From Treponema sp. (GTDB lineage Bacteria > Spirochaetota > Spirochaetia > Treponematales > Breznakiellaceae): a stretch of 17,397 nt of DNA. The notes under the pieces are model-generated. The model did no database searches and was not told the origin of the DNA. It was given only the letters and a program-made list of their open reading frames with translations. Positions 1,886-17,397 of this stretch are shown piece after piece. The position numbers and the translations under genes were made by a program. Location of the stretch: NCBI GenBank assembly GCA_031288815.1, contig JAITQR010000071.1, positions 1 to 17,397 of the forward strand, written 5' to 3'. Positions within the stretch are counted from its first letter, which is position 1. Every line of letters starts with the position of its first letter.

Positions 1886-2833
1886 ATGGCGGGAAGATTA
1901 CCGGTGGCGCTTGGTCTTGCGGCGGTATTCCTGGTTTCGTGCCGGGGGGAGGGAGGATACAGCGCGGAGGAGCTTGAATCCCTGGCCCGGATGAGTCTGA
2001 TCCGGGGGGAATACGCGCAAGCCCTGGAATACGCGGAAAAGACCATCGCCCTGGATCGGGAGGAAAGGCCGGGACCTCTGTTTCTTAAGGGGCATATTCT
2101 TATCGCCCGGGAAGAAGACGAAAAGGCGCTGGATTTTTTCACGGGACTTTTCAGTACCCGCCGGGATGACGCGGGGGCCGAAGACATCCGGGCCTATATG
2201 TACCTTCTGGCCCGGGCGGGCCGGGCGGCGGAGGCGGCGGAGATGACCGATCTCTTTTTTGAAAGGGGCTCCTACTTTCCCGGTCTGGGCTTTTTTGCCT
2301 CCTCGGTGTACGAGTCCGCCGGCGAGACGGACAAGGCGGTTCTGGCGGCTTTTCTGGACTACGAATACCACTCGGGTTTTTCCGGGGCCGATGACGGATC
2401 TTTTCTGCGAAACATCGGAACCCTGGAAGAACGGCTTGAGGCCCGGAGCCTTGAGGAGGGCGAAAGCGCCGGGAACGCGGCCAAGGCCGCCCGGCCCCTC
2501 GAACTGCTCCGCAGCCTCTACGATCCGCAGACCGGCGTTCCCGCCGATTACGAGGCGCCTTTTTTCACCGGGGATTACATCGTCTGCAAAAAAAAGATCC
2601 GCGAGGGTTCCTTTACCGAGGCGGATTTCAGCCGCTACCTTTCGCTGGAACCCTACTTCCGTTCCTTTCCCTCTTACTACTGGAATCTCTGGCGGGGCGC
2701 CCTGCTGGTCAACGAAAAACCTCCCTCGGAATACCTGGCCGCCCTGGAAAAGGTGATCGCCCTGGACAGGGAAGGGATCTACGCGAAACCCGCCTGGGGA
2801 GAGCTTACCCGGTTCCTTGGATTTGAAGAATGA
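1886..2833 (+). CDS. TPR-repeat lipoprotein, operon gene 1
   Basis: A 315-residue exported lipoprotein. The N-terminal hydrophobic stretch ends in FLVSC, giving a lipidated Cys19 after cleavage by signal peptidase II. The mature part is helical. TPR-like helix pairs are recognisable at about 25-60 (ending YAQALEYAEKTIALD), 62-95 (LKGHILIAREEDEKALDFF) and 105-165. The C-terminal half (about 180-315) is less regular and ends in another ALEKVIALDREG-like TPR helix. TPR proteins usually hold protein complexes together, so a periplasmic scaffold role in the RND assembly is plausible but inferred. The start is ATG with GGAAGGAG 7 bases upstream. The gene overlaps the next one by ATGA. I recognise no specific family. 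Confidence 0.85.
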   Translation: MAGRLPVALGLAAVFLVSCRGEGGYSAEELESLARMSLIRGEYAQALEYAEKTIALDREERPGPLFLKGHILIAREEDEKALDFFTGLFSTRRDDAGAEDIRAYMYLLARAGRAAEAAEMTDLFFERGSYFPGLGFFASSVYESAGETDKAVLAAFLDYEYHSGFSGADDGSFLRNIGTLEERLEARSLEEGESAGNAAKAARPLELLRSLYDPQTGVPADYEAPFFTGDYIVCKKKIREGSFTEADFSRYLSLEPYFRSFPSYYWNLWRGALLVNEKPPSEYLAALEKVIALDREGIYAKPAWGELTRFLGFEE

Positions 2834-3492
2834 GGGGAGTTCGCGGGTCTTTCCGCCGGCCTTTCCGGCTGTGGATCGTCCTGGGCGCGGCGCTCCTGTT
2901 TTCCTGCGGACGGAACAAGGGAGAGGCGGAGCGGGCGTATCTGGCCGCCGTGGAAGCCTACGGCGGTGAAAATTACCAGGAGGCCCTTGTCCAGGTCCAC
3001 CGGGCCCTGAAAGCGGATCGGGCCTTTTACCAGGCCGAATTCCTTCTGGGCAAGGCGCTCTTCTTTGCCGGGGAGGAGGCCGGGGCCCTGGAAGTGTTTT
3101 CCCGGCTGGTAAAACGACGGCCAGAATACACCGAGGCCCGTCTCTGGCGGATCCGCTGCCTTGTTCTGGCGGGGCGCCACGGGGAAGCGGAAAAGCTGCT
3201 TGACCGGGAGCTTTCCTTTAATTCCTCGGACTGGCGGCCCCTGTACCTTTACGCCCTGCTGGCCCAGAAGACCGGGGATTACGAAAAAAGACTCTCCATG
3301 GGGAGGCGGGCGGAAATGACGCTGAGCGACAGCGCCAAGGTCTACCTGGATCTGGCGGTGGCGTGGTACGCCCTGGAACTGAAAGACCGGGCCGCCGCTT
3401 ACCTGGAAAAAGCCCAAACCGTTTCAGGCTCCAATATTCCCCTCGGGAGGATTGAAGAAACCCTGAAACAGTCTTTCGGAGGAGAACCATGA
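2830..3492 (+). CDS. TPR-repeat lipoprotein, operon gene 2
   Basis: A 220-residue exported lipoprotein. A basic N-terminus and hydrophobic segment end in LLFSC, with lipidated Cys26. Canonical TPR units follow: about 35-68 (AYLAAVEAYGGENYQEALVQ), 70-102 (LLGKALFFAGEEAGALEVFS), 104-136 (RIRCLVLAGRHGEAEKLLD), 138-170 and 174-205. It thus consists almost wholly of TPRs and is probably a periplasmic docking or assembly factor. The start is ATG in an ATGA overlap with gene 1. The Shine-Dalgarno is weak, so translation is probably coupled to gene 1. It resembles gene 1 in design but is shorter, and the pair may be an old duplication. Substrate and partner are unknown. Confidence 0.85.
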   Translation: MRGVRGSFRRPFRLWIVLGAALLFSCGRNKGEAERAYLAAVEAYGGENYQEALVQVHRALKADRAFYQAEFLLGKALFFAGEEAGALEVFSRLVKRRPEYTEARLWRIRCLVLAGRHGEAEKLLDRELSFNSSDWRPLYLYALLAQKTGDYEKRLSMGRRAEMTLSDSAKVYLDLAVAWYALELKDRAAAYLEKAQTVSGSNIPLGRIEETLKQSFGGEP

Positions 3493-3998
3493 GACGACAA
3501 TTTTACTGTTTCTTCCTGGGGCTTTTCGCCCTGCTGGCGTTTTCCTGTATGACAACAAACAAACGGTCTTCCTATACCGGCTATCCGCCCCCTCCCTTCT
3601 TCTGGGAGTGCCGGCCGGGCAGAATACAGGTGACAATCGACCGGGTTAGGGAGGAAGGCATCGCGGAACAGGTTGAGACTATCATTCAAACCTGGCTGGA
3701 CAGGAAACAAAACTACGATCTCAAAACAGACAGGCCCCTGTTCCTGGACCTTACCATGGAGCAGCGTTCCTTTATACGGAACGCGGAGTTCTATAACACC
3801 ATCTACATATCCTGCGTCCTGAGGGACGAGGAGGGGACGGTTTACGCCAGGGAAAACGAGTATATAACGGGCAGGCGGAACCTGGTAACCAGCCTGGAGC
3901 AGTACCGGATCATGAAGCGTATCATGGGGAAGCTTCTAAGGGATCAGAAGAAGCGCCACAGGGCCGCGGCGGCGTACCGCAAAAGAAATGAAAGCTAA
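3489..3998 (+). CDS. Small lipoprotein of unknown function, operon gene 3
   Basis: A 169-residue protein that I cannot assign to a family. The signal segment ends in LLAFSC, giving lipidated Cys20. It is followed by a short Ser/Pro-rich linker containing YPPPPFF (about 33-39), then a compact alpha/beta region (about 45-135) with alternating strands such as IQVTIDRV and TIYISCVLRDEEG. The tail (about 138-169) is very basic and helical. Size and layout would suit a small periplasmic lipoprotein partner of an outer-membrane channel, but this is a guess from position directly before the TolC-like gene. The start is ATG with a strong GGAGGAG, in an ATGA overlap with gene 2. It overlaps the TolC gene by 11 bases. 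Confidence 0.8.
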   Translation: MRRQFYCFFLGLFALLAFSCMTTNKRSSYTGYPPPPFFWECRPGRIQVTIDRVREEGIAEQVETIIQTWLDRKQNYDLKTDRPLFLDLTMEQRSFIRNAEFYNTIYISCVLRDEEGTVYARENEYITGRRNLVTSLEQYRIMKRIMGKLLRDQKKRHRAAAAYRKRNES

Positions 3999-5421
3999 GC
4001 GCTCCCGCAAGAGGCCAAGCCTTTTCCTTTCCCTGTTTTTGGCCCTGTTCCCGGCCCCCGCCGGCGCGCCGGAAGAAGCGGCGGGCCCCGGGGGAGGGAA
4101 GGTTCTGTTCCGATCGGCGGAAGAAGCGGCGGATTTCGCCGCCAGGAATTCCAGGACCTGGATACTGCGCGGAGAGGAGGTTTTACAGAATATGAAAGCG
4201 GCGAAATGGGACTTGCGGGAATTCCTTCCCAGCTTCAGCTTTTCCCTCAACGAATCGGACAGTACGGCTGTCATGGCCGGCGATTCCCGCAGCAAGAGTA
4301 TACAGGCTTCGATAAACCAGAAGATCTTCGACGGCGGCAAAAACAAGCTGGCCTACGAGACAAGCCGCCTTAACTCCCTCTACGCGTACCAGGAATACCA
4401 GGGGGAACTGAGGGAATTCCGCTCCGGTATTATCGCCCAGTACTATAGCTGCCTTATCCAGGAAGAAACGAACCGCGTCAGGGAAGACCTGCTAAACGCC
4501 GCCAGGGAAGAGCTTGAAATTATCCGCTGGGAAACCACTCTGGGCCTGGGCCTTGAGACGGATTATCTTGAATACCTCGCGTCCTGCATCACCATCGAAC
4601 ATGAACGGGATCAGGGCCTCCGGGATCTGAAAACACAGGAACGGCGCCTGAAAGATTCCGTCGGTCTTGACCGGGAGGCGGAACTGGAGATCCGGGAGGA
4701 TATCCACGACGGCTTTGAATACTTTTACTACGAACCCCACCTGGACCTGCTCTGGCGGCTGGCTAGAACCGCCAGCGTTGAGTTGAAAAAACAGAGCCTC
4801 GCGGCGCGGTCCGCTCAAAAACAGCTCGCCCACAGCCGGCGCTGGTACGTCCCCTCCGTCGGCGTACAGGGCAGCGTTTCCTTTGCCGGCCTCAGCTACC
4901 CGCTTACCGAGCCGAAGTACTCCCTTAAACTGACCTTTGATTTTTCCAACCTCAACCTCATGCCGCTGAGCCTCAATCCGGGTTACGGGTTTGAGCGGGA
5001 CCGGCTCTACCAGGTGAGCAACGGTGTCTCCGCGAGTATCCCGCCAAACCCGGTTTACCCCGTCGCCCGGAAACTGGAAGACCTGGCGGTACTGCGGAAC
5101 AGGCTTAATCAGGGGGAGGCGGAAAAAGAACTGGAGGAAAGGCTCTACAATCTGGTTATAGCCCACGACTCCAGCCTCCGTTCCGCCGACACGGCCCGGC
5201 GGATGATCGATGTACAGGAGAAGCGGATAGAATTTTCCCGGCTCCTGGTGGAACAGGGCCGGAAAAAACGGATCGATTTGCTGAACGAGCTTATCGAATT
5301 GAGCCAGTCAAAGATATCCCTCAGGGAACAGCGGATCCAGGCGGTGGCGCTGGAACGTTCCCTGGAAATACTCGCCGATTTTCCCTTTGGAGGTTTACGG
5401 TATGAATGTCTTGAACGCTAA
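3988..5421 (+). CDS. TolC-like outer-membrane efflux protein
   Basis: A 477-residue member of the outer-membrane efflux (OEP/TolC) family, the exit duct of tripartite pumps. The N-terminal signal peptide (about 1-27, basic then LFLSLFLALF, probable cut after PAGA) has no lipobox. The rest shows two repeated halves of long amphipathic helices (about 42-80 and 120-235, then 255-285 and 365-470) interrupted by short strand pairs, for example SFSFSLNESDS at 83-93 and SIQASINQKIFDGGKNKL at 104-121. The phrase QKIFDGG is typical of the first strand-to-helix turn. Length is normal. The ATG lies inside the end of gene 3 and has no clear Shine-Dalgarno, so expression probably depends on coupling. The following adaptor and two RND permeases confirm the role. 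Confidence 0.88.
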   Translation: MKAKRSRKRPSLFLSLFLALFPAPAGAPEEAAGPGGGKVLFRSAEEAADFAARNSRTWILRGEEVLQNMKAAKWDLREFLPSFSFSLNESDSTAVMAGDSRSKSIQASINQKIFDGGKNKLAYETSRLNSLYAYQEYQGELREFRSGIIAQYYSCLIQEETNRVREDLLNAAREELEIIRWETTLGLGLETDYLEYLASCITIEHERDQGLRDLKTQERRLKDSVGLDREAELEIREDIHDGFEYFYYEPHLDLLWRLARTASVELKKQSLAARSAQKQLAHSRRWYVPSVGVQGSVSFAGLSYPLTEPKYSLKLTFDFSNLNLMPLSLNPGYGFERDRLYQVSNGVSASIPPNPVYPVARKLEDLAVLRNRLNQGEAEKELEERLYNLVIAHDSSLRSADTARRMIDVQEKRIEFSRLLVEQGRKKRIDLLNELIELSQSKISLREQRIQAVALERSLEILADFPFGGLRYECLER

Positions 5422-6769
5422 AATTCCGGCCCTGGATCCGGTACTGATACTGTCCGGCCTGGCCCTGTTTTCCCTGGCCCAGCTTTCCTGTTCCCCTGAA
5501 ACCGTTTCTTCCGATGACCGGGCTTTCGCCGTTCAGGCGGTCTCCGTTGAGCTGAAGCCCCTGCGCGACAGCCTCAGCAGTTTTGGTTCCATCACGTACC
5601 GGATAAAAAACGATATTACCGTTCAGGTGGAGGGGACCATATCCTCCCTTTACGTGAAAGAGGGCGACCGGGTAAGGGCCGGACAGCCCCTGGCCCTGCT
5701 GCGGAACCTGGATCTGGAAACGCGGAGGGAACAGTACGAGAACGCCCTGGACGCGGCCAGGGCAAAGCTCAGCACCGCCCGGACGGGCATGCGGGAGGCC
5801 CGGCTCGCCGTGGAGGCCCGGATCCTTTCGGTAGCCAAGGAGGAATTCAGCCTGACCCAGCAGGAGCTTGAATTCGCCGAGGCCGCCGAGGCCCTGGAAA
5901 AACAGCGGAAACTCCTCAGCCTGGGGGGACTTACCGGCGCGGCCTTCAGGGACATGGAAGTTTCCCTCAGCGCCAGGGAAGCGGGCATCGCGGTGCTGAA
6001 AAAGGACATTGAAATTACCCGGCTGGGACTGCGGGAAGAGGATCTCGCCGCGGCGGGCCTTGAGCCTTCCCCTGATCCGGCGGAGAAAATCCGGCAGTTT
6101 GTGGAGCTGAATACCCGCGCCGCCGCCGCGGAACTGGAAGCCGCGGAAGCGGAACAGCGGAACGCGGAAAAAAACCTCGAGTCGGTTAACCGGCTTATCG
6201 GGGAACTGCTGATCCGTTCCACTGTTTCCGGCGTCGTGGGGGCGCTGTACTTCGAGAACGGCGAGCACGTCCCCCAAAACGAAAAGTTCGCCACCCTCAT
6301 GGACACCTCCGGGGTATTCGCCGTTTTTTATATTCAGGAACAGGACATGATCCGTTTTTCGGAAGGCGCGGCGGTGGAGATTGAGATACCCTCCCTGGGA
6401 CAGAGAGTTCAGGCGAAACTGGACGAGATATCCCCCGTGGCCGATCCCCAGAGCGGTAATTTTTCCGTTAAGGCCTCCCTCCCCAACCCCGATCTGAGCA
6501 TCAAGCCGGGGATGTTTATCAGGTGCCTTATCCCAAGAACAGAAGAACTGCTGCTGCTCTCAATTCCCGAAACGGCGCTTCTCGCGGACAAGGACGGAAG
6601 GGACTATGTGTTCTGCGCGGTAAAGGGCGCGGCGCTGATCAAGGCCGTGGAGGTTCACAGCCGCAGGGACGGCAGGCTCTGGATAGAAGCGGGGCTTGCC
6701 GAAGGGGACATGGTGATAGACAAGCCCTCCCCTTTTCTGAAAGAAGGAGCCCCCGTTGAATACCGCTGA
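5402..6769 (+). CDS. RND efflux periplasmic adaptor (HlyD/MFP family), lipidated
   Basis: A 455-residue adaptor linking the RND permease to the TolC-like channel. The N-terminus ends in LAQLSC, so Cys30 is lipidated, as in AcrA/MexA. The domain order is classical: first lipoyl half about 70-103 (VEGTISSLYVKEGDRVRAGQ), a long alpha-helical hairpin of about 105-260 rich in Glu/Arg/Ala, second lipoyl half about 270-305 (STVSGVVGALYFENGEHV), a beta-barrel about 308-390 and a membrane-proximal domain to the end (ending SPFLKEGAPVEYR). The hairpin is long, suiting direct contact with a TolC partner. I chose ATG 5402 because GGAGG lies 8 bases upstream. The frame also opens at TTG 5387, which has nothing in its favour. 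It overlaps the TolC gene by 20 bases and the next gene by 14. Confidence 0.9.
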   Translation: MNVLNAKIPALDPVLILSGLALFSLAQLSCSPETVSSDDRAFAVQAVSVELKPLRDSLSSFGSITYRIKNDITVQVEGTISSLYVKEGDRVRAGQPLALLRNLDLETRREQYENALDAARAKLSTARTGMREARLAVEARILSVAKEEFSLTQQELEFAEAAEALEKQRKLLSLGGLTGAAFRDMEVSLSAREAGIAVLKKDIEITRLGLREEDLAAAGLEPSPDPAEKIRQFVELNTRAAAAELEAAEAEQRNAEKNLESVNRLIGELLIRSTVSGVVGALYFENGEHVPQNEKFATLMDTSGVFAVFYIQEQDMIRFSEGAAVEIEIPSLGQRVQAKLDEISPVADPQSGNFSVKASLPNPDLSIKPGMFIRCLIPRTEELLLLSIPETALLADKDGRDYVFCAVKGAALIKAVEVHSRRDGRLWIEAGLAEGDMVIDKPSPFLKEGAPVEYR

Positions 6770-8210
6770 CTTTATTTTTTTACCGAAGATCTCTCCGGCC
6801 CTCCTGGCCCTGCGCGCCCTCCTCCTTGTCCCGGCGGCGTTGGTTTTATCCGGCTGTCCTGTCGCCAGTTTCGACTATCTGGATGTTTCCTGCTCAATTT
6901 CCGAGGGGGAGGCGTACTTCGCCGGGGATCATGTCCGGATAGGCTTTTCACAGGATCCCGACAAGGAAGACGCGGAACGGCAGATCGGGTTTTATGAAAA
7001 AGGCTCGGTGGCGGAAACGGTGTTCGCCTGGGAAGGGGCGAGCCTCCTGATCCGGCCAAAGAAACCCTGGCGGAGGGGACAGTCCTATTCCCTTTCCTTT
7101 GACGGGGATCTGCGGATGGAGCGGGGCGGGTCCTACGCGGTCAGGCTTTACCGGGCCTTCCTCTACGGCGAAGCGGATGACGCATTCGAACTGGTAAGTT
7201 CCTCCTTCGCGGAGGATACACTTACCCTGGTCTTCTCGAAACCGCCGCTTATCACCTCTTTTAACGAAAACTTTTTTCTCAGCCCCGGCGCGGAGTACCT
7301 GGCCGAATTTTCCCCCCATAGCGCCACGGTAAGGGTCAAGGCCCGGGACAGTTGGGGGCTGGATGTTTCCTACAGGTGGGAACTCGGAAACATGGTGAGC
7401 GCCGACGGCCGGCTTATGCGGAAGGAGTTTTCGGGGATCTTCCAGGGCCCCCGGGACACCGGTTTTCCCCGGCTGCTCGAGTCCTGCCCGGTGAGTTTCG
7501 ACAACCCGCCGGCCCTCTGGCACAGGGGCCTTTCCCTGGACGGCAATCTCCTGGAATGGCAGGGCATCGGTTTTGTTTTTTCCAAACCCATGGACGAGGC
7601 TTCGGTCAAAGGGGGAATCTCCTTTTTCCCCAGCCTGAAAGGCTACTTTGAACGGGAGGGGGAGGACCGGTTCATCTTTATCCCCGAGGAACCTTACCGG
7701 CTTGAACAGGAGTACCGGATCCTTGTGGCGGACACGGTGAAAGACCGGTTGGGACTTTCCCTTTTCGAGCCGGTACAGGTGTTTTTTACCGGGGCCGGCC
7801 GCTGCCTCACCGTGGATTCGCTTACCCTGGATGACGCCGGTGTAGCTCTGGTTCCCGGCGGGATCATACAGGAACACTACCTTGAGCCGGTAACGCCTCC
7901 CGCGCCTTTCCGCCTGCGGGCCAGCATCGATTTTTCCGCCGCCATCCCGCCTGAAAACCGGAAAGCGGCCCTGGACGCGGTATCCCTTTCGGTACTGTTC
8001 CCCCCATCGGCCCACAACCCGGCGCTGCTTGGCGCCCGCTGGTCAAACGGCGGCTCGCGGCTCTCCCTGGCCTGGGAGGATCTCTCCCAAAGCAGCGCCG
8101 CCGTCTCCAACTATTACCGGCTCGGTATTAGCGGTGGAACAAAGGGCCCGCAAAACGCCGCGGGAGAATATCTCAAGGAGGATCTATGGTTTCTGTTCTG
8201 CGCCAGGTAA
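6756..8210 (+). CDS. Lipoprotein with SbsA/Big_5-type Ig-like domains, operon gene 6
   Basis: A 484-residue exported lipoprotein. The hydrophobic segment ends in ALVLSGC, with lipidated Cys34. The mature part is all-beta and consists of about four units of the SbsA/Big_5 Ig-like type. The clearest is about 272-350: GFVFSKPMDEASV, then a predicted PEEPYRLEQEYRILVADTVKDR strand-turn block, then a VFFTG closing strand. Similar but weaker units lie at about 42-150, 152-255 and 375-484. Such domains mediate binding in cell-surface and periplasmic proteins, and no catalytic motif is visible. The start is TTG 6756, supported by GAAGGAG 6 bases upstream. The gene overlaps both neighbours (14 and 25 bases). 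Placing such a protein between adaptor and permeases is unusual for RND operons. Confidence 0.82.
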   Translation: MNTADFIFLPKISPALLALRALLLVPAALVLSGCPVASFDYLDVSCSISEGEAYFAGDHVRIGFSQDPDKEDAERQIGFYEKGSVAETVFAWEGASLLIRPKKPWRRGQSYSLSFDGDLRMERGGSYAVRLYRAFLYGEADDAFELVSSSFAEDTLTLVFSKPPLITSFNENFFLSPGAEYLAEFSPHSATVRVKARDSWGLDVSYRWELGNMVSADGRLMRKEFSGIFQGPRDTGFPRLLESCPVSFDNPPALWHRGLSLDGNLLEWQGIGFVFSKPMDEASVKGGISFFPSLKGYFEREGEDRFIFIPEEPYRLEQEYRILVADTVKDRLGLSLFEPVQVFFTGAGRCLTVDSLTLDDAGVALVPGGIIQEHYLEPVTPPAPFRLRASIDFSAAIPPENRKAALDAVSLSVLFPPSAHNPALLGARWSNGGSRLSLAWEDLSQSSAAVSNYYRLGISGGTKGPQNAAGEYLKEDLWFLFCAR

Positions 8211-9679
8211 AGTATTTTTTGGCCGGCCTGGCGATAATCGGCCTGGTTATCCGCTGCGGCTCCTGGCTGCTCCCGCCCCTGGAAGTGCTTTCGGTTTCCA
8301 CCCAGGGGGAACTGAGGATCGATTTTTCCGCCCCTCCCACGCCGGCGTCGATCCGGAAAGCCTTTTCCATGACCGAAGACGGGGTGGATCTGTTCGGGGA
8401 TTTTGAGTTTCAGGGCCGCCGGGTAATCTACCGTCCGGTGAACGGTCTCCGGGAAGGCCGGGAATATTTTGTCCTTATCGGAACCGGGGCGGAAGATGAA
8501 AAGGGCAACTCTCTGGAACGGGAATTCCGCTACCTGTTCCGTACCAAGGAGGATACGGAGGGCCCGCTGATCGTCTCGATTGAGCCGGCCGACGAAAGCG
8601 TCCTTACCCTGCCCCCGGAAACAATTTTTCTGCGCTTTTCGGAACCGGTGGATCCCCAGTCTTTCGGCGAGGCCCTGCGGATAAGCCCTTCGCTTGACCA
8701 TATCCTCCGCTGGGATACGGAGGGGACGGCGGTAAGTATCGTCCCCCTTAAGCCCCTGGACGAGGGAACCCGTTACACCCTTAGCCTTGGCACGGCCCTG
8801 CGGGACAGATCCCGGAACGCCATGCTTCTTCCCTACAGCGCCACTTTTCTCTACGGGCCGGATCGGGAAGCGCCGGTTTTCAGCCTGGAATGGGAAAATC
8901 CCTCGGGGCTCCGGGGCGGCCTGGAAGCGGAAAGCCTCAACCGGGGTATAGCGGGGGACGCGGAATTTTCCCTGGTCTTCAACAAGAAAGTCGCCGTCGA
9001 ATCGGTGCCCGGATTCCTGGAGATAAACCCCTCCCTGGGCATATCCTTTAGCCCGGATCTGAAAAACCGGGACCGGGGGAAAATCGGCTTTTCCCAGAAA
9101 CCGGAATGGAACAAACCCTACACGCTTATTGTCAAGCGGGGGATAGCGGACACCCTGGGGAACAAAACCCCGGCGGACATCACTTTTCCCCTGCTGTTTA
9201 ACCGGGGCGATTTCAAGCCTCCCGTCTTTGTCCGGGGCTTTCTGAAAAACAACAGTGTTTATGAAGCCATAGGCGGGGACAGCAACTTTACAACCATTAC
9301 CCTCGACGCCGTAAGTTTCCCCACCCAGACGGAAAAAGAAACGGAACTCTATCTTGTCTTTAAGGTTTCACAAGAGGCGGATCTGCTTTCCCTGGCAAGC
9401 GCCATGGGCAGCCTGTCCGTTTCCGTGTCCAACGGCTGCGCCTATATTTCCGTTAAAACCATGGATGTACTGAACCAGGCGGCCTATGCCGGAAGTCCGG
9501 TCTACGATCCCCTGGATTCGCCGGGGGCGGGGGAACGGTTCTGCGCCCTCCTGGTGGGAATTGAAATCGAAAACACTACCCATCAGGGGATGGTGACCAT
9601 CACCGTTGACGGGGATCTGGCGGACTCCCTGGGGAACATTTTGGGGGAAAGCGTCTCCATCATCTGGAACAAACAGTAA
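8186..9679 (+). CDS. Second SbsA/Big_5-type Ig-like protein, probable lipoprotein, operon gene 7
   Basis: A 497-residue exported protein of the same design as gene 6. The N-terminal hydrophobic stretch (9-22) ends in GLVIRC. Cys24 would be lipidated, but Arg directly before the Cys is unusual for a lipobox, so it could instead stay anchored by an uncleaved signal. Ig-like units: about 32-120 (RIDFSAPPTPASIRKAFS), 127-227 (best match, IFLRFSEPVDPQSFGEALRI then PLDEGTRYTLSL) and 230-345 (FSLVFNKKVAVESV then YTLIVKRGIADTLGNK). A more divergent C-terminal beta domain follows to 497. The start is ATG, with AAGGAGG 4 bases upstream. It overlaps gene 6 by 25 bases, and its stop shares one base with the next start (TAATG). 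Genes 6 and 7 look like diverged duplicates. Confidence 0.82.
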   Translation: MVSVLRQVKYFLAGLAIIGLVIRCGSWLLPPLEVLSVSTQGELRIDFSAPPTPASIRKAFSMTEDGVDLFGDFEFQGRRVIYRPVNGLREGREYFVLIGTGAEDEKGNSLEREFRYLFRTKEDTEGPLIVSIEPADESVLTLPPETIFLRFSEPVDPQSFGEALRISPSLDHILRWDTEGTAVSIVPLKPLDEGTRYTLSLGTALRDRSRNAMLLPYSATFLYGPDREAPVFSLEWENPSGLRGGLEAESLNRGIAGDAEFSLVFNKKVAVESVPGFLEINPSLGISFSPDLKNRDRGKIGFSQKPEWNKPYTLIVKRGIADTLGNKTPADITFPLLFNRGDFKPPVFVRGFLKNNSVYEAIGGDSNFTTITLDAVSFPTQTEKETELYLVFKVSQEADLLSLASAMGSLSVSVSNGCAYISVKTMDVLNQAAYAGSPVYDPLDSPGAGERFCALLVGIEIENTTHQGMVTITVDGDLADSLGNILGESVSIIWNKQ

Positions 9680-12630
9680 TGAAGAAGCTCATCGCGTTCT
9701 CGGTACGCCATCCGGTATCGGCGCTTTCCGCCCTAACGGCCCTGAGTCTCCTGGGGCTCCTCTGCGCCTTTATCATTCCGGTGGATTTTCTGCCGGCCAT
9801 AAGTTCCCGGAATCTCCTGGTAGCCGCCGAGTACCCGGGGGTTTCCGCCGGGGAGATGCGTTCCATGGTGACCATACCCCTGGAGGATACCTTTGCCTCC
9901 CTCAGGGGGCTCAAGTCTTCGTCATCGGTAAGCCGGGACGGTATTTCCCTGCTTTCCCTGGAACTCCACTGGGGAAGCGACATAGATCTGGCCCTGACGG
10001 AAAGCAGGGAACTTATCGACCTCTGCTACGAGACCCTTCCCTCGGGCTGCGCAAAACCCCGGGTGTTCCGGAACGATTCGGCCCGGACAGACGATATCAC
10101 CCTGATCCTCATACCCCTGGACGGGGATCTGCGTTACGGGCGGCATATCGCCGAGACGGACATCAAACCCCGGCTTCAGCGGCTTTCCGGAACCGCCTCG
10201 GTTTCCATCTCCGGGGGGGAGGAGGAGGAGATGCAGCTTCGTTTTCACCGGGCCGCCCTGGAATCCAGGGGGATCAGCCTGTCGGAGGCGGCGGAAATCG
10301 TGTCCGCCGCGAATTTTGAATACCCGGCGGGGACTATCCGGGAGGGGGAACGGGAGCGGGGAGTCAGGACGGCGGGACTCTGGAAAAGCCCGGAGGAGAT
10401 CGGAAACACTCCCCTGGTCTATAACGAGGGGGGTCTGGTCCGGGCGGGGGATCTGGCGGATCTGGTTCGAACCGGCAGGAGGAGGGAAGCCTTTTTCCTC
10501 TACAAGGGCATGGAGGCCGTCAGAATAGGAATCCGGAAAAAGGCGGGGGCAAGTCCCCTCCCCCTTTCCGCCGGGGTAAAGAGGGAAATCGAAACCCTCA
10601 AAAACCTGTACGGCAAGTGGTACGAATTTGAGATAAGTTCCAACACCGCCGATTCTGTCGTGGAATCCCTCTTGTCCCTCCTCTTTTCGGCTCTGGCGTC
10701 TATCCTTGCAGCCGGGGCGGTGGTATACCTGTTTTTCCGTTCGTTTAAGCTGTCCCTGCTTATCATGGGGATCATTCCCCTTTCGGCGCTGTTCGCGATC
10801 CTTGTTTTAAAGCTCTGCGGCCAAAGCCTCAACGTCATGTCCCTTTCGGGCATCTCCATGGGTATCGGCATGGTGATAGACGCCGGCGCCGTAACGGCGG
10901 AAAGTATCCGGAGGGAACTTGAAAGAGGAAGCGCCGAAACGACGGAGACCCTGGTCATACGCGGGGCGGAAGCCGTATCCCTGTCAAATTTCGCGTCCTC
11001 CCTCAGTACGGTCATCGTTTTCGCGCCGGTTTTTTTTATCGGGGGACTCCTGGGGGAACTCTTCAGCGGTATGGCCATAGGACTTATCGCGTCCATATCG
11101 GTCTCCTGCCTCCTCTCGTTTACCTACATCCCGGCCCTCTCGGTTTTTCTCTCCGGCCCGGCGGGGAGGGTTACCGATAATCCCTGGATAGCCCTGGCGG
11201 CGGAAAAATACGAAAAACTGTTGGCTTACCTGTTAAAGAAACCCCGTTACGCCTTTATCCCCCTGGCCCTCTGCCTGGCGGCCGGGCTTCCCTCCTTTTT
11301 TTTAATTGAACGCCGCCTCCTGCCGGAGCTTTCCTCAAAGATCCTGTCCTGGGAAATGGACTTTCCCCCGGACACGAACCTTGAGGCCCTGCGCCGCTGG
11401 GCTGTTGAAATATACCGGGATCTCCGGGAGGAACCCTGGATCAGGGAACTTGAAATCGCCGGGGGGCTTGAGCGCGGGGACTACCAAAGCCTTGCCCTGC
11501 TGGATGAAGGTTTTGAAAAACTCCGCCTTACCGCGAAACTCGGCATAAACTCCGAAAAGGGGCGGGAAAAGATCGCCGGCCTTTTCCGGAACGATTCTTA
11601 CCGGATCTCCTTCGGGAAATCCCGGGACATCCTCTCCCGGCTCCTGGATCTGAAAGGGGATTTAACGATCCTGCGGGCCGGAAGCCCGGAAGAGGCCAGG
11701 GCCAGGGCGGAAGCCCTGGCGGAGAGGGGCTTTTCCTTCGCCCCGGATGCCCTCCGCGGCGGGCCGGTGTTCAGCCCCGACCGGCTTGCCCTTTCCCGCT
11801 TTTCCCTAAGCGCCCGGTATACCGCCTCCGCGGCCAGGGACAGCCTGGAGGGGATATACGCCTCGTCCTACTACGAGGGAGGCCGGGAGATTCCCCTTTT
11901 GGTGAGGCTGCGGGACGAGGATATGAACTCCCTTGAGGATCTGGAAAACGTCCTTATTCCCGGGCCGGCGGAAAGCCGTATTCCCCTGCGGTTTTTAGGT
12001 TCCTTCGCCGAGGAAAGGGATGAAAAGGTACTGTTCCGCCACAACCGGCGGGACGCGAAAGAGATCCGGGGGCCGGGAATACTAAAGGGAGAGGGCCTTG
12101 ATCTGGTTTCCCCCGGCAGGGCGGATATTGACGAAATGACAAGAAACGGCCTCTTTCTCCTCATAGTCACCGGGGTTCTCCTCTACCTGAGCATGGGGGC
12201 CCAGTTTGAATCCCTTGCCGTACCTCTGGTGCTCCTCGTGGCCGTTCCCCCGGCCTGTTCCGGGGCCTTCCTCTCCCTCCTCCTTACCCGGCAGCCCCTG
12301 GACAGCAACAGCGTGATAGCCCTGATCACCCTCTTTGGCGTTTCGATAAACAATTCCATTCTCCTCTACGAATCCTGCGCCGGCAGGGACGGCAAGAAAC
12401 CGGAAAGCGGCGAAATAGCCGGGAACTGCGCGGGAAAACTGCGGGCCCTTCTGATAACCAACCTTACCACCCTTATCGCCCTCCTCCCCTTCGCCGCGGA
12501 TCCCCTGGGAATAAACGCCCAGGCGTCCCTGGCCACGGCGCTCATCGGGGGTCTTGGCTGTTCCCTGGTTCTGGTTCTTACGGTAGTGCCGGTATGTTTA
12601 CGCTACACCCTTCCCGGAGGCCGCCAATGA
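9679..12630 (+). CDS. RND-family inner-membrane permease, first of two
   Basis: A 983-residue RND (AcrB/HAE-like) transporter with the usual duplicated layout: TM1 about 12-34, periplasmic loop 35-325, TM2-TM6 about 327-490, TM7 about 523-543, periplasmic loop 544-820, TM8-TM12 about 821-975. TM1 is followed by VDFLPAIS, and the loop begins with the typical EYPGVSAGEM and TIPLEDT blocks. TM4 reads SMGIGMVIDAGAV, so D401 matches AcrB D407, while the second Asp (D408) is Ala, as in CusA-type pumps. TM10 reads GVSINNSILLYE, with N891 in place of AcrB K940. It is shorter than AcrB (1049 aa), mainly at the loops and C-terminus. The start is ATG in a TAATG overlap without a clear Shine-Dalgarno, so it is coupled to gene 7. 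Substrate unknown. Confidence 0.92.
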   Translation: MKKLIAFSVRHPVSALSALTALSLLGLLCAFIIPVDFLPAISSRNLLVAAEYPGVSAGEMRSMVTIPLEDTFASLRGLKSSSSVSRDGISLLSLELHWGSDIDLALTESRELIDLCYETLPSGCAKPRVFRNDSARTDDITLILIPLDGDLRYGRHIAETDIKPRLQRLSGTASVSISGGEEEEMQLRFHRAALESRGISLSEAAEIVSAANFEYPAGTIREGERERGVRTAGLWKSPEEIGNTPLVYNEGGLVRAGDLADLVRTGRRREAFFLYKGMEAVRIGIRKKAGASPLPLSAGVKREIETLKNLYGKWYEFEISSNTADSVVESLLSLLFSALASILAAGAVVYLFFRSFKLSLLIMGIIPLSALFAILVLKLCGQSLNVMSLSGISMGIGMVIDAGAVTAESIRRELERGSAETTETLVIRGAEAVSLSNFASSLSTVIVFAPVFFIGGLLGELFSGMAIGLIASISVSCLLSFTYIPALSVFLSGPAGRVTDNPWIALAAEKYEKLLAYLLKKPRYAFIPLALCLAAGLPSFFLIERRLLPELSSKILSWEMDFPPDTNLEALRRWAVEIYRDLREEPWIRELEIAGGLERGDYQSLALLDEGFEKLRLTAKLGINSEKGREKIAGLFRNDSYRISFGKSRDILSRLLDLKGDLTILRAGSPEEARARAEALAERGFSFAPDALRGGPVFSPDRLALSRFSLSARYTASAARDSLEGIYASSYYEGGREIPLLVRLRDEDMNSLEDLENVLIPGPAESRIPLRFLGSFAEERDEKVLFRHNRRDAKEIRGPGILKGEGLDLVSPGRADIDEMTRNGLFLLIVTGVLLYLSMGAQFESLAVPLVLLVAVPPACSGAFLSLLLTRQPLDSNSVIALITLFGVSINNSILLYESCAGRDGKKPESGEIAGNCAGKLRALLITNLTTLIALLPFAADPLGINAQASLATALIGGLGCSLVLVLTVVPVCLRYTLPGGRQ

Positions 12631-15600
12631 AAAAACGCCTCCCGGGCTTCCGGCTCCCGCGCCCCGCCGCGCCGGTCTTTGCCTTTGTCATGGTGTCCGT
12701 ACTCTGCGTCTATATTCTGAGGCAGGAGGAACTGGGGGAAGCCGGGGAGGGAAGATACCGGGTCTACAGCGTCCGTTTTGAGTACTTCGGAATGGATGAA
12801 ACGGAGATTGAGCGGCTCATTACCATTCCCCTGGAAGAAAAAATTTCCGGCCTGGGGGACATTTACGAGATCCGCTCGGTAAGCGAGTACGGAAAATCGG
12901 TAAGTTCCGTGTACTTCGATCGGAAAGCCGACGGAAAACGCCTCTACCTTGCCCTGAGGGACGCGGTAGACGCCCTGTACTCCACCCTTCCCGGGGCGGT
13001 ACAGAAACCCAGGATCTTTTCCGCCGAATCGGGCAAGCGGTCTTTCCTCAGCGCGGCGGTGTTCGCGCCGGGGGATCTTAACCGGGCCAGGGCATACGCG
13101 GAAGACCGGCTCAAAAGGGAACTGGAAAACCTGGACGGTATCGCCGAGGTCATTGTTTCAGGCGGAACCCAGAGGGAGATCCTCATAGAATTCGATCCGG
13201 AAAAAACCGCCGCCAGGGGAATAAACCCGGCGGTTCTGGGCGGGGTGGTACAGGACGCCAATATCCTCAGTCCCGGGGGAACCATCTACGGGAAGGAACG
13301 GAACAGGACCGTGGGGTTCAGAACCAGGCTGGGAACGCCGGCGGCGGGAACGCCCCAGGGGGGAGCGGCCAGCGATCCTTCCGGCGATACCGGCGATGCT
13401 TTTGAAGACGCTTTTCTTGGGGAACTCGAAAAACTGCCGGTTAAGGCCGGAGAAACCTTAAACACCCTGGATTACTTTGCCCGGATCGGAATCCAACCAA
13501 GGGAAAGGCGGGAGATCCTCAGGATAAACGGGGAGGAATGTGTGGGCGTTGATATTGTGGCCGCTTCTTCCGCGGACATCATCGCCCTTTCCCGGAAATG
13601 CGGAAAGATACTGGAGGGCCCGGTGGAGACCGGGACCGGGACGGGGGAAGGCGGGACGCCCGCCGTGTCGGTAACGATACTGCGGGACACCGGAAGATTC
13701 TTTGAATCGGCAATCCGGGGGGTGCGGAAGGCTATCCTCCAGAGCGTCCTGGCGGTGCTGCTCATCATCCCCCTGTTTTTCGGCCGGCCCAGAACCCTGG
13801 CCTTAATTCTGCTGTTCATCGGCGCGGATATCCTCTGGTCATTCGCGGTTCTCCACATCATTTCGGTCAAGCCGGACGAGAACCTGCTTTCCGGCATTTC
13901 AATATCCCTGGGGCTTATCGTAGACCCCTGCCTGGTCATGGCCTCCCTCGCGGAGCGGGAGAACAATCCGCTCCGCTACCGCGCCGCCGTCCCCGGCCTC
14001 CTGTGGGAGATCGCCGCCTCAACCCTCACCACCTTTCTGGTGATCCTGCCCCTCTGCTTCCTGGACTCCATCGTACCGGGAATCCGCAAGGTAGCCCTGG
14101 CGATCATGGCTATGCTCTGCAATTCCCTCGTGCTTTCGGTTTTCTTCTTCGCCGGTTTTCTGTTCCAGGAACAGGGGGAGCCCCTGCTGCCCCCAGGGTT
14201 TTTTCGCCGGACCCGGCGGCTTTACACCCGTCTCTCCTGGGGCTGCTGTCTTTTCAGCCTGGGCCGCCGGAGAACCATGGCCGGGATCTACGCCGGTTTG
14301 GCCGCCCTGTCCCCCGTTCTCTTCTTCGTTTCCGGGAAGAACGTCGGTCTTGACGTTCAGGATCAGGTACTCTACGGGTCGGTGGAATACGAAAGCGAAA
14401 AGTCAGGCGAATCGGTGGACAGGGATCTGGAGGATCTTTCGGATCTGATCCGGGAGAAAGAGGGGGTGCGTTACGTCCGCCTTGAAAGCAGGAAGGGACC
14501 CGGGGAATTGGAGATAGGTTTTGACGAAAAGAAAAGCGGCCGCGCGGATCTGGCCGCCGCCGTCGCCGCCCTGGCGCCCCGGGTGGGGAATGGTTTTCTC
14601 TACGTACCCGACGCGGAGGGCGCTAAGGCCGGAGGCGGGAGATACCCCGGAGGACCCAGGGTAAGGGAAATCGAGGTAGCCGCCGTGGGCGACGACGCCG
14701 GGATATGCAGGGAAATGGCGAAAAAGGGGGCCCGGGCCATGCAGACCATTCCCGGCTATGTCCAGGCGGTTCTCAACTTCAAGGAAGCCGAAGGGGTGGT
14801 AGAGCTGGTTCCCCACAGGGACAGCCTGGCAAGGAGCGGGCTTACGGTCCGGGACATGGCGAGGGACCTGCGCTGGACTGTGTTCGGCCCGGTGATTGAT
14901 AAGCGGGTACAGGGGGGAAGGGAGACGGACATCCGCCTGGTGGGAAGCGGGACGCGGAACGGTTCCCTTTCGCGGATTGCCAATCTCCCCGTCTCCTCTC
15001 CCGCCGGGGCGGTACGGCTTGAAACCCTGGGAAGCCTGCGGGAGAGGCCGGGGACAGGCAAAATATACCGCCGGGACGGCAGAAGGGCGGCTTACTTCAC
15101 CGTCCATCTCAGAGCCCCCAGTTCCAGCCAGGCCGCCGGGGCGGTAAAGAGGGCCCTGGCGGAATCCGCCGAAACCGGTTCCGGTGGGACGGACGGAATA
15201 GAACCGGCCCGGAAGGGCTACGGCTACCTCCTCTCCCGGGATCTGGAACTCCTGGAGGCCCAGTACGGAACCCTCTTTTTCGCCTTCCTGGGAAGCGGCG
15301 GGGGCATCTTCCTTGTTCTTCTCTGCCTCACGGAAAAGTGGAGAAGCGCCGTCCGTATCGCCTCAATTATTCCCGTCTCCTGCGCGGTTCCCCTCCTGGT
15401 AAGATTTCTCTCCGGAAAGCCCCTGGAGATGGGCGACATGGCGGCGCTGGTGGTGATAAGCGGCCTCAGCGTTAATAACGCCATCTACATCGAGGGGGCT
15501 CGGCTGAGGGCCGTTCATTTCCGGGTACGGGAAAAAATTCAGAGCATCCTTACCACATCCCTTACCGGAATAGCCGGGGCGGCGCCTCTTGCCCTCATGG

Positions 15601-15797
15601 GCGGGGAAGGCTTCCCCGCCGCCCTGTCCCGGGGGATCCTCTGGGGAACCCTGGGCTCCCTGGCCGCCGCGATCCTCCTGTTCCCGGCCTTATGCGGACC
15701 CGATCAAAAGACCGTAAACCCGGCTGGTTTTGGAAAAGCCTCGGTTTACCTGTTGTTTCCAAGGGCTTGCCATTCGGAAACCGAAGTTTCCGGATAA
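12627..15797 (+). CDS. RND-family inner-membrane permease, second and more divergent
   Basis: A 1056-residue RND permease paralogous to the preceding one but far diverged. TM1 is about 14-31, the first periplasmic loop 32-365 (with ERLITIPLEEKISGL at 62-76), TM2-TM6 about 366-512, TM7 about 548-568, the second loop 569-880 and TM8-TM12 about 880-1024. TM4 reads ISLGLIVDPCLVMAS: D433 is kept, but the next residue is Pro. TM10 reads GLSVNNAIYIEGA, with N950 where AcrB has K940. A Gly/Ser/Thr-rich low-complexity stretch (about 233-258) lies within the first loop, and a second one (about 333-345) lies just before TM2. The C-terminal tail after TM12 (about 1025-1056) is not typical. The start is ATG in an ATGA overlap, with GGAGG 6 bases upstream. 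An earlier ATG at 12594 in the same frame lacks such support. Probably forms a mixed complex with the first permease, as MdtB and MdtC do. Confidence 0.9.
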   Translation: MKKRLPGFRLPRPAAPVFAFVMVSVLCVYILRQEELGEAGEGRYRVYSVRFEYFGMDETEIERLITIPLEEKISGLGDIYEIRSVSEYGKSVSSVYFDRKADGKRLYLALRDAVDALYSTLPGAVQKPRIFSAESGKRSFLSAAVFAPGDLNRARAYAEDRLKRELENLDGIAEVIVSGGTQREILIEFDPEKTAARGINPAVLGGVVQDANILSPGGTIYGKERNRTVGFRTRLGTPAAGTPQGGAASDPSGDTGDAFEDAFLGELEKLPVKAGETLNTLDYFARIGIQPRERREILRINGEECVGVDIVAASSADIIALSRKCGKILEGPVETGTGTGEGGTPAVSVTILRDTGRFFESAIRGVRKAILQSVLAVLLIIPLFFGRPRTLALILLFIGADILWSFAVLHIISVKPDENLLSGISISLGLIVDPCLVMASLAERENNPLRYRAAVPGLLWEIAASTLTTFLVILPLCFLDSIVPGIRKVALAIMAMLCNSLVLSVFFFAGFLFQEQGEPLLPPGFFRRTRRLYTRLSWGCCLFSLGRRRTMAGIYAGLAALSPVLFFVSGKNVGLDVQDQVLYGSVEYESEKSGESVDRDLEDLSDLIREKEGVRYVRLESRKGPGELEIGFDEKKSGRADLAAAVAALAPRVGNGFLYVPDAEGAKAGGGRYPGGPRVREIEVAAVGDDAGICREMAKKGARAMQTIPGYVQAVLNFKEAEGVVELVPHRDSLARSGLTVRDMARDLRWTVFGPVIDKRVQGGRETDIRLVGSGTRNGSLSRIANLPVSSPAGAVRLETLGSLRERPGTGKIYRRDGRRAAYFTVHLRAPSSSQAAGAVKRALAESAETGSGGTDGIEPARKGYGYLLSRDLELLEAQYGTLFFAFLGSGGGIFLVLLCLTEKWRSAVRIASIIPVSCAVPLLVRFLSGKPLEMGDMAALVVISGLSVNNAIYIEGARLRAVHFRVREKIQSILTTSLTGIAGAAPLALMGGEGFPAALSRGILWGTLGSLAAAILLFPALCGPDQKTVNPAGFGKASVYLLFPRACHSETEVSG
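15772..15795 (+). repeat. Hairpin across the end of the second RND gene
   Basis: CGGAAAC (15775-15781) and GTTTCCG (15786-15792) form a perfect 7-bp stem with tetraloop CGAA. It extends to about 10 bp with flanking T-A, T-G and A-T pairs and reaches the stop codon. No T-run follows, so it is not a standard terminator. It may stabilise the 3' end of the operon message or reduce read-through into the ankyrin gene. The left arm region AAACCGA (15778-15784) can also pair with TCGGTTT (15741-15747), so two folds compete. Confidence 0.45.
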
Positions 15798-16922: not shown

Positions 16923-17397
16923 ATGATTATTGACATCTCAAAAACGGCGCTTATCGAAATAGACGTACAGAACGATTTTTGCCCTCCCTACGTATTGTCC
17001 GGGGGGGAAAAACTTCCCGCCGGCGCTTTGGCGGTTGAAAGGGGGGACGAGGTTATCCCTCCCCTGAATACCCTGGCGGGAGAATTCGGGCGGCGGGGGG
17101 GGCGGGTAATAGCCACCGCCGACTGGCACCCCCGGGGACACGTGTCCTTCGCCTCCGCCCAGGGCAGAAAGCCCGGGGAAGTCCTGGAACTCCCCGGCGG
17201 GGAAAGTCAGGCGCTTTGGCCGGATCACTGCGTCCAGGGAAGCGCCGGGGCGGATTTTCACGAAAAACTGGATCTTATAAACGTGAATCTCATCATCCGC
17301 AAAGGTTTCCGGCCCGGTCTTGACTCCTATTCGGCTTTTTTTGAAAACGACCGCAAGACCTCTACGGGACTTGAGGGTTATATTAAATACCTGGGGC
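16923..17397 (+). CDS. pncA: Nicotinamidase (PncA family), 5' part
   Basis: The first 158 codons of an isochorismatase-fold nicotinamidase, cut by the window edge. The enzyme hydrolyses nicotinamide to nicotinate and ammonia in the cytoplasm, feeding NAD salvage. Active-site residues visible by family comparison are D14 in IEIDVQNDF (triad Asp), D67 and H69 in TADWHPRGH plus H102 in WPDHCVQGS (metal ligands), and K127 in IIRKG (triad Lys). The catalytic Cys should lie just past the edge. ATG 16923 has GAGGTGG 5 bases upstream and a promoter close by, so this gene begins a new transcription unit unrelated to the RND operon. Confidence 0.93.
   Translation, partial: MIIDISKTALIEIDVQNDFCPPYVLSGGEKLPAGALAVERGDEVIPPLNTLAGEFGRRGGRVIATADWHPRGHVSFASAQGRKPGEVLELPGGESQALWPDHCVQGSAGADFHEKLDLINVNLIIRKGFRPGLDSYSAFFENDRKTSTGLEGYIKYLG

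What the first reader, a model, noticed from the sequence alone, without database searches (positions are those of the whole stretch)
1886..15797. Nine-gene RND machine with two unlike permeases and five extra lipoproteins
Seen: nine consecutive plus-strand genes with every junction overlapping by 1-25 bases, encoding TPR lipoproteins (two), an unknown small lipoprotein, TolC-like channel, lipidated adaptor, two Ig-like proteins and two RND permeases. Known: ordinary tripartite RND operons need only channel, adaptor and one permease, with MdtABC having two permeases. Inferred: the five additional envelope proteins form a scaffold or substrate-handling module, so the system may export a lipid, glycan or lipoprotein rather than drugs. 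I know of no named system with this composition.
Basis: partly seen in the sequence, partly recalled or inferred. Interest (0 to 1): 0.8.

Follow-up and report, generated by a model that had tools for sequence, protein, structure and literature searches.

The report
Spirochaete pump tied to giant toxins
The nine genes encode an old, conserved spirochaete envelope pump, and nearly every spirochaete genome found here to carry a giant secreted protein with interchangeable tips, some of them cell-wall-cutting, also carries this pump, so it is probably an unrecognised export machine for antibacterial toxins rather than a drug pump.

Summary
Confirmed: nine overlapping plus-strand genes (1886-15797) encode two TPR lipoproteins, a small lipoprotein, TolC, adaptor, two Ig-like lipoproteins and two unlike RND permeases. 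The set is an ancient spirochaete module: 69 of 95 loci hold TolC, adaptor, two Ig genes and two permeases; 41 of 60 loci chosen by the Ig gene hold both permeases. New: a giant secreted protein (about 2,650-5,100 aa) goes with it. Its N-terminal domain occurs in 75 of 392 spirochaete genomes; 73 of these carry the module marker, itself in only 89 of 392. On contigs over 0.9 Mb the two lie within 20 kb in 10 of 13; in four loci the giant's start overlaps the last permease's stop. The giants look like polymorphic toxins: like backbones with different tips, small secreted genes behind, orphan tip cassettes; 3 of 18 tips are recognisable cell-wall peptidases. Best reading: a dedicated RND/TolC exporter for giant toxins; export itself is inferred. 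The window holds no giant and its genome is not held; 4 of 7 relatives' genomes carry one, on other contigs. My paper searches found no named system.

The parts
1886..2833 (+). g1: TPR-like lipoprotein (315 aa), least conserved part
   Evidence: (TPR_7 25 bits, under cut-off)
2830..3492 (+). g2: TPR lipoprotein (220 aa)
   Evidence: (TPR_19 42 bits)
3489..3998 (+). g3: small lipoprotein (169 aa), PelC/LptE/CsgG/PqiC-type predicted fold
3988..5421 (+). g4: TolC-type outer-membrane channel (477 aa)
   Evidence: OEP 88 bits
5402..6769 (+). g5: RND adaptor (MFP), lipid-anchored by eye
   Evidence: HlyD_D23; RND_mfp 179 bits, over cut-off
6756..8210 (+). g6: Ig-like (Big_5) lipoprotein (484 aa)
   Evidence: 36.6 bits; invariant Cys34
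8186..9679 (+). g7: Ig-like (Big_5) lipoprotein (497 aa), string of Ig-like domains
   Evidence: 89 bits; pLDDT 88; SbsB/SbsC S-layer E 3e-9; invariant Cys24
9679..12630 (+). g8: RND permease 1 (983 aa); first TM4 Asp kept, second Asp and TM10 Lys replaced
   Evidence: (MdtB 9lyq, 192 bits, best solved relative)
12627..15797 (+). g9: RND permease 2, divergent (1056 aa); first TM4 Asp kept
   Evidence: Searches used the frame from 12630, one residue short
15821..16729 (+). ankyrin-repeat lipoprotein behind g9; no homologue in the fetched loci; possible immunity-type protein (speculative)

Best explanation
The nine genes encode a dedicated, RND-powered trans-envelope export and delivery machine for giant (about 2,650-5,100 aa) secreted polymorphic toxins of spirochaetes. 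Proposed working: the giant enters the periplasm through Sec (inferred: signal peptide read by eye). The two RND permeases (perhaps a mixed trimer as in MdtBC, recalled), the lipid-anchored adaptor and the TolC trimer form the conduit and push it out with proton-motive force (inferred; both permeases keep the first TM4 aspartate). The TPR lipoproteins, the PelC/LptE-like lipoprotein and the two Ig-string lipoproteins receive, hold or display the giant at the outer membrane (inferred). The giant's variable C-terminal tip, in some cases a peptidoglycan peptidase, then attacks a neighbouring cell, while a small secreted or lipid-anchored protein encoded just behind it protects the maker (inferred from gene order and tip families). 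Shown here: gene content and conservation, the giant-module co-occurrence and linkage, and the polymorphic architecture of the giants. Not shown: export, physical contact, toxicity, or a giant in the window's own genome.
For: Co-occurrence: giant N-terminal domain (A10) in 75 of 392 Spirochaetota genomes, 73 of which carry g7 at E<=1e-37, a level reached in 89 of 392 (Fisher 1.2e-60, not corrected for kinship; cut-off set). Kinship check: on an RpoB tree of 30 chosen genomes, the seven with neither g7 at that level nor the giant N-terminus lie scattered among those with both; 6 label changes are needed, 4 forced by well-supported branches. Linkage: 35 of 38 same-contig pairs lie within 20 kb; on contigs over 0.9 Mb, 10 of 13, against about 1-4% by chance. 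Operon coupling: in L041, L048, L056 and L068 the giant's ATG overlaps the g9 stop, with a ribosome-binding-type sequence inside g9. In L071 the giant follows TPR-TPR-TolC-adaptor-Ig-Ig directly, where the RND pair normally stands. Specificity: the giant's late region (A9) occurs in 72 genomes; those whose longest frame is 2,000 aa or more have the module marker in 52 of 54, shorter ones in 9 of 18. In seven of the marker-less genomes the fetched stretches hold late-region cassettes or fragments without the N-terminus. Polymorphism: the giants of G149 and G113 are 70-98% identical per block along the backbone, then 23-42% in the tip. 35 tips form 22 clusters that cross species. M23 (two tips) and NlpC/P60 (one) pass Pfam cut-offs. 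Small secreted/lipoprotein genes lie within about 70 bases behind 8 of 12 giants (secretion by eye).
Against: No giant lies in the window. Among the searched genomes of its relatives 4 of 7 have one, on a contig other than the module's. Ten further genomes with g7 at E 1e-22 to 1e-32 (G022, G049, G071, G107, G138, G146, G173, G186, G196, G227) were counted as lacking the marker; none has the giant N-terminus, so counting them in would give 73 of 99. 25 of 69 complete-module loci have a giant in the fetched stretch, so 44 do not. Only 3 of 18 tips scanned alone have a family over its cut-off. Immunity genes are inferred from position. No RND pump is known to me to secrete large proteins.
Confidence: 0.6

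Rival explanations
1. One reading: the machine exports a lipid, glycan or lipoprotein to the outer membrane or surface; the giants merely share operons or genomes with it.
For: g3 is predicted to have the PelC/LptE/PqiC/CsgG-type fold; PelC works with the TPR-containing PelB in polysaccharide export (recalled). A PlsC-like gene lies near the module in 3 loci (window, L062, L078). 16 of 89 module-marker genomes have no detected giant. In the window's relatives the giant is on another contig.
Against: The giant is the largest recurring flanking cluster (19 loci); the other printed clusters have 3-10 loci and most were not annotated. 73 of 75 giant-N genomes have the module marker.
Confidence: 0.17
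2. The giant is a partner rather than a cargo or a weapon: a periplasmic or surface structural protein with cell-wall-remodelling tips, which the module needs to work or helps to place.
For: The only tips with a family over its cut-off (3 of 18) are cell-wall peptidases (M23, NlpC/P60; weak CHAP and YkuD besides), so self-remodelling is conceivable; Trp-rich, probably helical N-terminal region (helices not predicted).
Against: Tips switch between closely related backbones, 35 tips form 22 clusters crossing species, and orphan tip cassettes alternate with small secreted genes: marks of polymorphic toxins.
Confidence: 0.13
3. An ordinary MdtABC-like multidrug or metal RND pump with lineage-specific accessory lipoproteins.
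For: Channel, adaptor and permeases are bona fide RND-pump families; closest solved relative of g8 is MdtB.
Against: The Ig pair and usually g2 stay with the pump over deep spirochaete divergence, while the three loci fetched around other RND genes (L064, L066, L067) lack them; the giant link would be unexplained.
Confidence: 0.1

Closest known systems
MdtABC/MuxABC-type tripartite RND pumps
   Same: TolC channel, adaptor, two different tandem RND permeases; g8's best solved match is MdtB
   Different: Five further lipoproteins, lipid-anchored adaptor (by eye), second permease far diverged, TM4 Asp-Asp reduced to one Asp and TM10 Lys replaced by Asn, giant toxin-like partner
Type I secretion (ABC exporter-adaptor-TolC; LapA/RTX-type giant proteins; recalled)
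   Same: TolC plus HlyD-type adaptor, giant secreted protein encoded alongside in many genomes
   Different: RND pair instead of an ABC ATPase; the giant bears an N-terminal signal peptide (by eye), so a Sec-first two-step route is implied
Polymorphic toxin systems (CDI, Rhs, MafB, LXG; Zhang et al. 2012, PMC3482391, passages seen)
   Same: Long protein with conserved N-terminus, variable C-terminal tip, following small gene, orphan cassettes
   Different: No RND/TolC trafficking in the passages seen; TolC and RND each occur 0 times in the held text (first 300,000 of 357,715 characters)
PelB-PelC outer-membrane exopolysaccharide exporter
   Same: TPR protein (PelB, recalled) with a PelC-fold lipoprotein (g3)
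   Different: Outer-membrane conduit here is TolC-type; no Pel genes seen; fold similarity only (9-14% identity)
Treponema pallidum MacAB-like and TP0790 RND efflux systems (PMC8407342, passages seen)
   Same: Spirochaete TolC-type channels and an RND pump
   Different: There one RND pump stands apart from the adaptor and channels; no TPR/Ig lipoprotein set is described in the passages seen

Membership tests
Tripartite RND efflux (HAE/MdtABC type) | TolC-type channel, MFP adaptor and RND permease encoded together | tested here: met
   OEP 88 bits, RND_mfp 179 bits, ACR_tran 432 and 214 bits
Tripartite RND efflux (HAE/MdtABC type) | Proton relay Asp407-Asp408-Lys940 (AcrB numbering, recalled) | tested here: not met
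   first Asp kept in g8 and g9; second Asp replaced and Asn at the Lys site in all full-length module permeases aligned. Of three other spirochaete RND genes one (L066) reads VDN/NNG alike, two (L064, L067) have the canonical VDD and K
Tripartite RND efflux (HAE/MdtABC type) | Small-molecule efflux | not testable with these tools
   needs knock-out and susceptibility assay
Type I secretion system | ABC ATPase as the inner-membrane engine | tested here: not met
   no ABC gene among the nine; inner-membrane parts are ACR_tran
Polymorphic toxin (the giant partner, not in the window) | Conserved backbone with abruptly variable C-terminal tip between close relatives | tested here: met
   G149 vs G113; 35 tips, 22 clusters
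Polymorphic toxin (the giant partner, not in the window) | Toxin-type domain at the tip | tested here: met
   3 of 18 tips over a Pfam cut-off: M23 35.0 and 36.4 bits (cut-off 28.7), NlpC/P60 28.0 (cut-off 23); the other 15 have no family over its cut-off
Polymorphic toxin (the giant partner, not in the window) | Immunity gene directly downstream | tested here: inconclusive
   small ORF on the same strand within about 70 bases in 8 of 12 giants (L129-L132, L135, L137, L138, L140); protection not testable
Polymorphic toxin (the giant partner, not in the window) | Orphan tip cassettes | tested here: met
   L129, L130, L157, L158, L159
CDI (CdiB/CdiA two-partner secretion) | Haemagglutinin-type secretion domain in the giant and a CdiB barrel | tested here: not met
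   no Pfam family over cut-off in the two giants scanned (L129, L137); outer-membrane protein of the module is OEP
Phage tail tape-measure protein | Match to phage protein families | tested here: not met
   0 PHROGs families at E<=0.01 for the 3 giants scanned
PelC/LptE-type lipoprotein (g3) | Fold | tested here: met

The most novel reading that the evidence does not exclude
Spirochaetes have a secretion system of their own: a Sec-then-RND/TolC machine with a nine-part lipoprotein-rich core, driven by proton-motive force, that exports and displays giant polymorphic toxins with exchangeable tips, some of them cell-wall-cutting, for fighting neighbouring bacteria. To my knowledge it would be the first protein secretion system built on a TolC-linked RND pump pair.
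Probability: 0.55. Interest if true: 0.93.

Novelty: categorically new. Interest (0 to 1): 0.85.

Why it matters
RND pumps are studied as drug, metal and lipid exporters; a protein-exporting TolC-linked RND machine would be a new secretion principle. It would also give spirochaetes, whose weapons against other bacteria are to my knowledge hardly described, a widespread antibacterial system, and would give a role to a large family of unassigned lipoproteins (457 g7-like proteins at E<=1e-6) and of 3,000-residue proteins. The claim is directly testable by deleting one gene and looking for one very large protein.

Tried and rejected
Rejected: chance ORFs (order conserved); a dead second permease (the first TM4 Asp is kept in every full-length module permease aligned: window, L001-L008, L039-L063, L065; the split g9 of L049/L050 was not in it); phage tape-measure origin of the giants (0 PHROGs for 3 giants); CDI (two giants).

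Led nowhere: plasmid search (0 matches); ankyrin gene in the fetched loci (0 tblastn hits); g7's conserved residues suggest no ligand or metal site (F, S, G, P, Y; inference); NCBIfam on three giants (one weak RipC match); a regular expression for NlpC tips was too loose and a crude lipobox expression too rough, neither is used. The promoter scan gave 3 sites against 4.7 in shuffles, and the terminator scan 36 against 24.1 (sd 5.0), scattered over both strands; I draw nothing from either. The protein search with the diverse g7 alignment added almost nothing, with g7 of long-contig genomes, gave 457 proteins (120 listed) and two names (Leadbettera azotonutricia, Gracilinema caldarium).

Rows dropped and choices: L009-L038 (short stretches of the g9 hits, most fetched again at length) and L064, L066, L067 are not in the 95; near-copies L042, L044, L046 and the window are in it. 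The 29 stretches were picked from the g9 hits, mostly the best; 26 hold Ig genes. The 60 stretches are strong g7 hits (E about 1e-44 or better, some genomes twice), leaving out loci already fetched through g9 and a few others of that strength. There is no g3 hit and no room for g3 in L041-L044, L068 and L071; g1 is weak or absent in several loci and sits on the other strand in L072, L098 and L104. In L049 and L050 g9 is broken, in L050 g6 is split. In the RpoB tree G013 has an aberrantly long branch, and the 30 genomes were chosen by me. The marker level E<=1e-37 was set; handles and main places were typed into.
Full report
What is in the window. One search confirms nine overlapping plus-strand genes between 1886 and 15797, with overlaps of 4, 4, 11, 20, 14, 25, 1 and 4 bases if g5 starts at 5402 and g9 at 12627. 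Pfam and NCBIfam give TPR (weak), TPR, none, OEP, RND adaptor, Big_5, Big_5, ACR_tran, ACR_tran. Upstream on the minus strand lie a PlsC-like and a HAD-like gene (names by eye) and a tRNA-Val. Behind g9 come an ankyrin-repeat lipoprotein (about 15821-16729) and an isochorismatase-like gene (name by eye). The window's own genome is not held; its relatives are uncultured termite-gut and rumen Treponema and other Spirochaetia (titles; the hosts of the termite-type records are partly recalled).

How conserved the nine genes are. An alignment of g7 found 8 loci in genome contigs; tblastn and profiles show g1-g9 in the same order in 7 of 8, the eighth being cut by its contig end. g9 was then searched in 392 Spirochaetota genomes and 29 stretches were fetched around chosen hits: nine (L039, L040, L045, L046, L048, L051-L054) show all nine genes in the window's order, three (L047, L049, L050) show all nine with the Ig pair moved in front of TolC (g9 broken in L049 and L050), and others lack g1 or g3. 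In the distant loci L056-L061 a divergent small lipoprotein gene stands in the g3 slot in 6 of 6. Two carriers could be named from protein records: Leadbettera azotonutricia (L061) and Gracilinema caldarium (L056).

A profile of g7 (A3) hit 159 of 392 genomes at E<=1e-8. I fetched 60 stretches around strong g7 hits not already covered through g9. 41 of 60 have both RND genes (4.5 kb or more of RND sequence by tblastn); 7 more have some RND sequence (L075, L081, L091, L108, L110, L119, L127); 12 have none, of which 7 are cut beside the Ig genes on at least one side (L076, L082, L084, L106, L120, L124, L125) and 5 have room (L070, L071, L079, L116, L122). L070, L079 and L116 are lone or broken g7 copies. 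Over all 95 loci tallied, 69 have TolC, adaptor, two Ig genes and two RND genes. Three arrangements exist: Ig pair before the RND pair, after it, or before TolC.

The permeases. g8's best solved relative is MdtB (192 bits); g9 matches solved pumps at no more than 96 bits (7cz9). Alignment of the full-length permeases shows that both keep the first TM4 aspartate, replace the second, and carry Asn where AcrB has Lys940 (numbering recalled). Of three other spirochaete RND genes, L066 has the same VDN/NNG pattern and L064 and L067 the canonical VDD/K. So neither permease looks dead, but the relay differs from AcrB's.

The tenth partner. Clustering flanking ORFs of the module loci gave one outstanding family: an ORF behind g9, or divergent from the module, in 19 loci; the other printed clusters have 3-10 loci and were mostly not annotated. 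Ten giants read whole are 2,649-3,704 aa, and frames reach 5,112. They start with a signal peptide (by eye) and gave no family over a cut-off in the whole-length scans made (Pfam: L071 piece, L129, L137; PHROGs: 3; NCBIfam: 3). In L. azotonutricia the frame is broken in two (L128; described only). With profiles for N-terminus and late region, 30 of the 95 loci contain the giant within the fetched stretch. In L041, L048, L056 and L068 the g9 stop overlaps the giant's ATG, with a purine-rich site inside g9. In L071 the giant follows the Ig pair where the RND pair normally stands; that genome has a complete module elsewhere (L054).

Giants as polymorphic toxins. (i) G149 and G113 giants are 70-98% identical per 100-column block along the backbone, then 23-42% at the end; G149 and G234 go from 79-90% in the last six backbone blocks to 7-30%. 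(ii) 35 tips of up to 250 aa form 22 clusters, and clusters join distant genomes; the tip of L140 groups with L132 and an L130 cassette, not with L131, its nearest backbone. (iii) Of 18 tips scanned alone, 3 have a family over its cut-off: M23 in L154 (35.0 bits) and in an L130 cassette (36.4), NlpC/P60 in L155 (28.0); under the cut-off are M23 in L134 and an L129 cassette, CHAP in L138 and YkuD in L132. (iv) Small same-strand genes, secreted or lipoprotein by eye, follow within about 70 bases in 8 of 12 giants examined, and a lipoprotein gene overlaps the giant of L156; one such protein (L131) has an SH3_3 domain over its cut-off. (v) Late-region cassettes follow the giants of L129 and L130 and stand in arrays with small genes in L157-L159. 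A motif like YDSSGDYWKLxxDGxL marks the boundary in 11 of 42 sequences.

Co-occurrence. The late region (A9) was found in 72 of 392 genomes; where the longest frame is 2,000 aa or more the module marker is present in 52 of 54, where it is shorter in 9 of 18. In the marker-less cases the fetched stretches show cassettes or fragments without the N-terminus in G133, G204, G207, G266, G269, G356 and G033, a complete giant in G023, and cut or unclear pieces in G232, G175 and G203. The N-terminus (A10) was found in 75 of 392 genomes, 73 with the module marker (g7 at E<=1e-37), which is in 89 of 392. Ten more genomes with weaker g7 hits (E 1e-22 to 1e-32) have no giant N-terminus; with them the share of module genomes having a giant would be 73 of 99. 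38 genomes have both on one contig, 35 within 20 kb; on contigs above 0.9 Mb 10 of 13, chance about 1-4% each. An RpoB tree of 30 chosen genomes (22 with both, 7 with neither, G023) scatters the 'neither' genomes among the others, with 6 changes needed and 4 forced, so common descent alone does not explain the link. Drafts among the seven may hide genes; G133, G204 and G207 lie on contigs over 3 Mb.

The window's own lineage. Of the genomes in which L001-L008 lie, 7 are held; a giant was found in 4 (G001, G002, G005, G007), 3,179-3,830 aa, on a contig other than the module's. So for the window the link is by kinship. The ankyrin lipoprotein behind g9 could be a left-over immunity-type gene: 'Imm-ank' is named as an immunity class in the passages seen of PMC3482391, but no homologue lies in the fetched loci; this is speculation.

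Literature. Searches for the module or an RND-linked polymorphic toxin in spirochaetes gave no relevant title (listings). In PMC3482391 (passages seen; first 300,000 characters held) TolC and RND occur 0 times. PMC8407342 (passages seen) describes T. pallidum's MacAB-like and TP0790 systems without such a set. The library lacks most subscription papers and all preprints.

Verdict. Observation confirmed. It is one ancient spirochaete machine. The best-supported role is a dedicated exporter for giant polymorphic toxins; the genomic association is strong, the mechanism is inferred. Its parts come from known families; 'categorically new' refers to the system as a whole, if the reading holds.

Noticed in passing
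window 15821-16729: Ankyrin-repeat lipoprotein gene 23 bases behind g9, in the place where several other genomes have the giant; possible immunity-type leftover.
   Followed up: partly
window 16924-17397: Isochorismatase/nicotinamidase-like gene (name by eye); a relative lies behind the module in L002 and L008.
   Followed up: no
L071 3254-19901 (G172): TPR-TPR-TolC-adaptor-Ig-Ig set followed directly by a giant gene with no RND pair; the genome has a second, complete module (L054).
   Followed up: partly
L127 4355-14849 (G030): Variant with longer Ig proteins (747 and 763 aa) and a single RND gene.
   Followed up: no
L157, L158, L159 (G133, G204, G207): Arrays of late-region tip cassettes with small secreted or lipoprotein genes in genomes without module marker or giant N-terminus.
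   Followed up: partly
L049, L050 (g9), L078 (g8), L128 (giant): Broken or split permease and giant genes; described only.
   Followed up: no
L089, L090, L101, L103, L107, L109, L112, L114, L121, L126: A second recurring neighbour of 261-320 aa near the RND pair in 10 loci, not identified.
   Followed up: no
L088, L092, L093, L096, L102, L105, L106: A small lipoprotein of 130-168 aa in front of TolC, probably the g3 counterpart.
   Followed up: no
L070, L079, L116 (G347, G341, G363): Lone, partly broken g7-like genes away from any RND genes.
   Followed up: partly
window 145-885, L062, L078: PlsC-like acyltransferase genes near the module in three loci.
   Followed up: no
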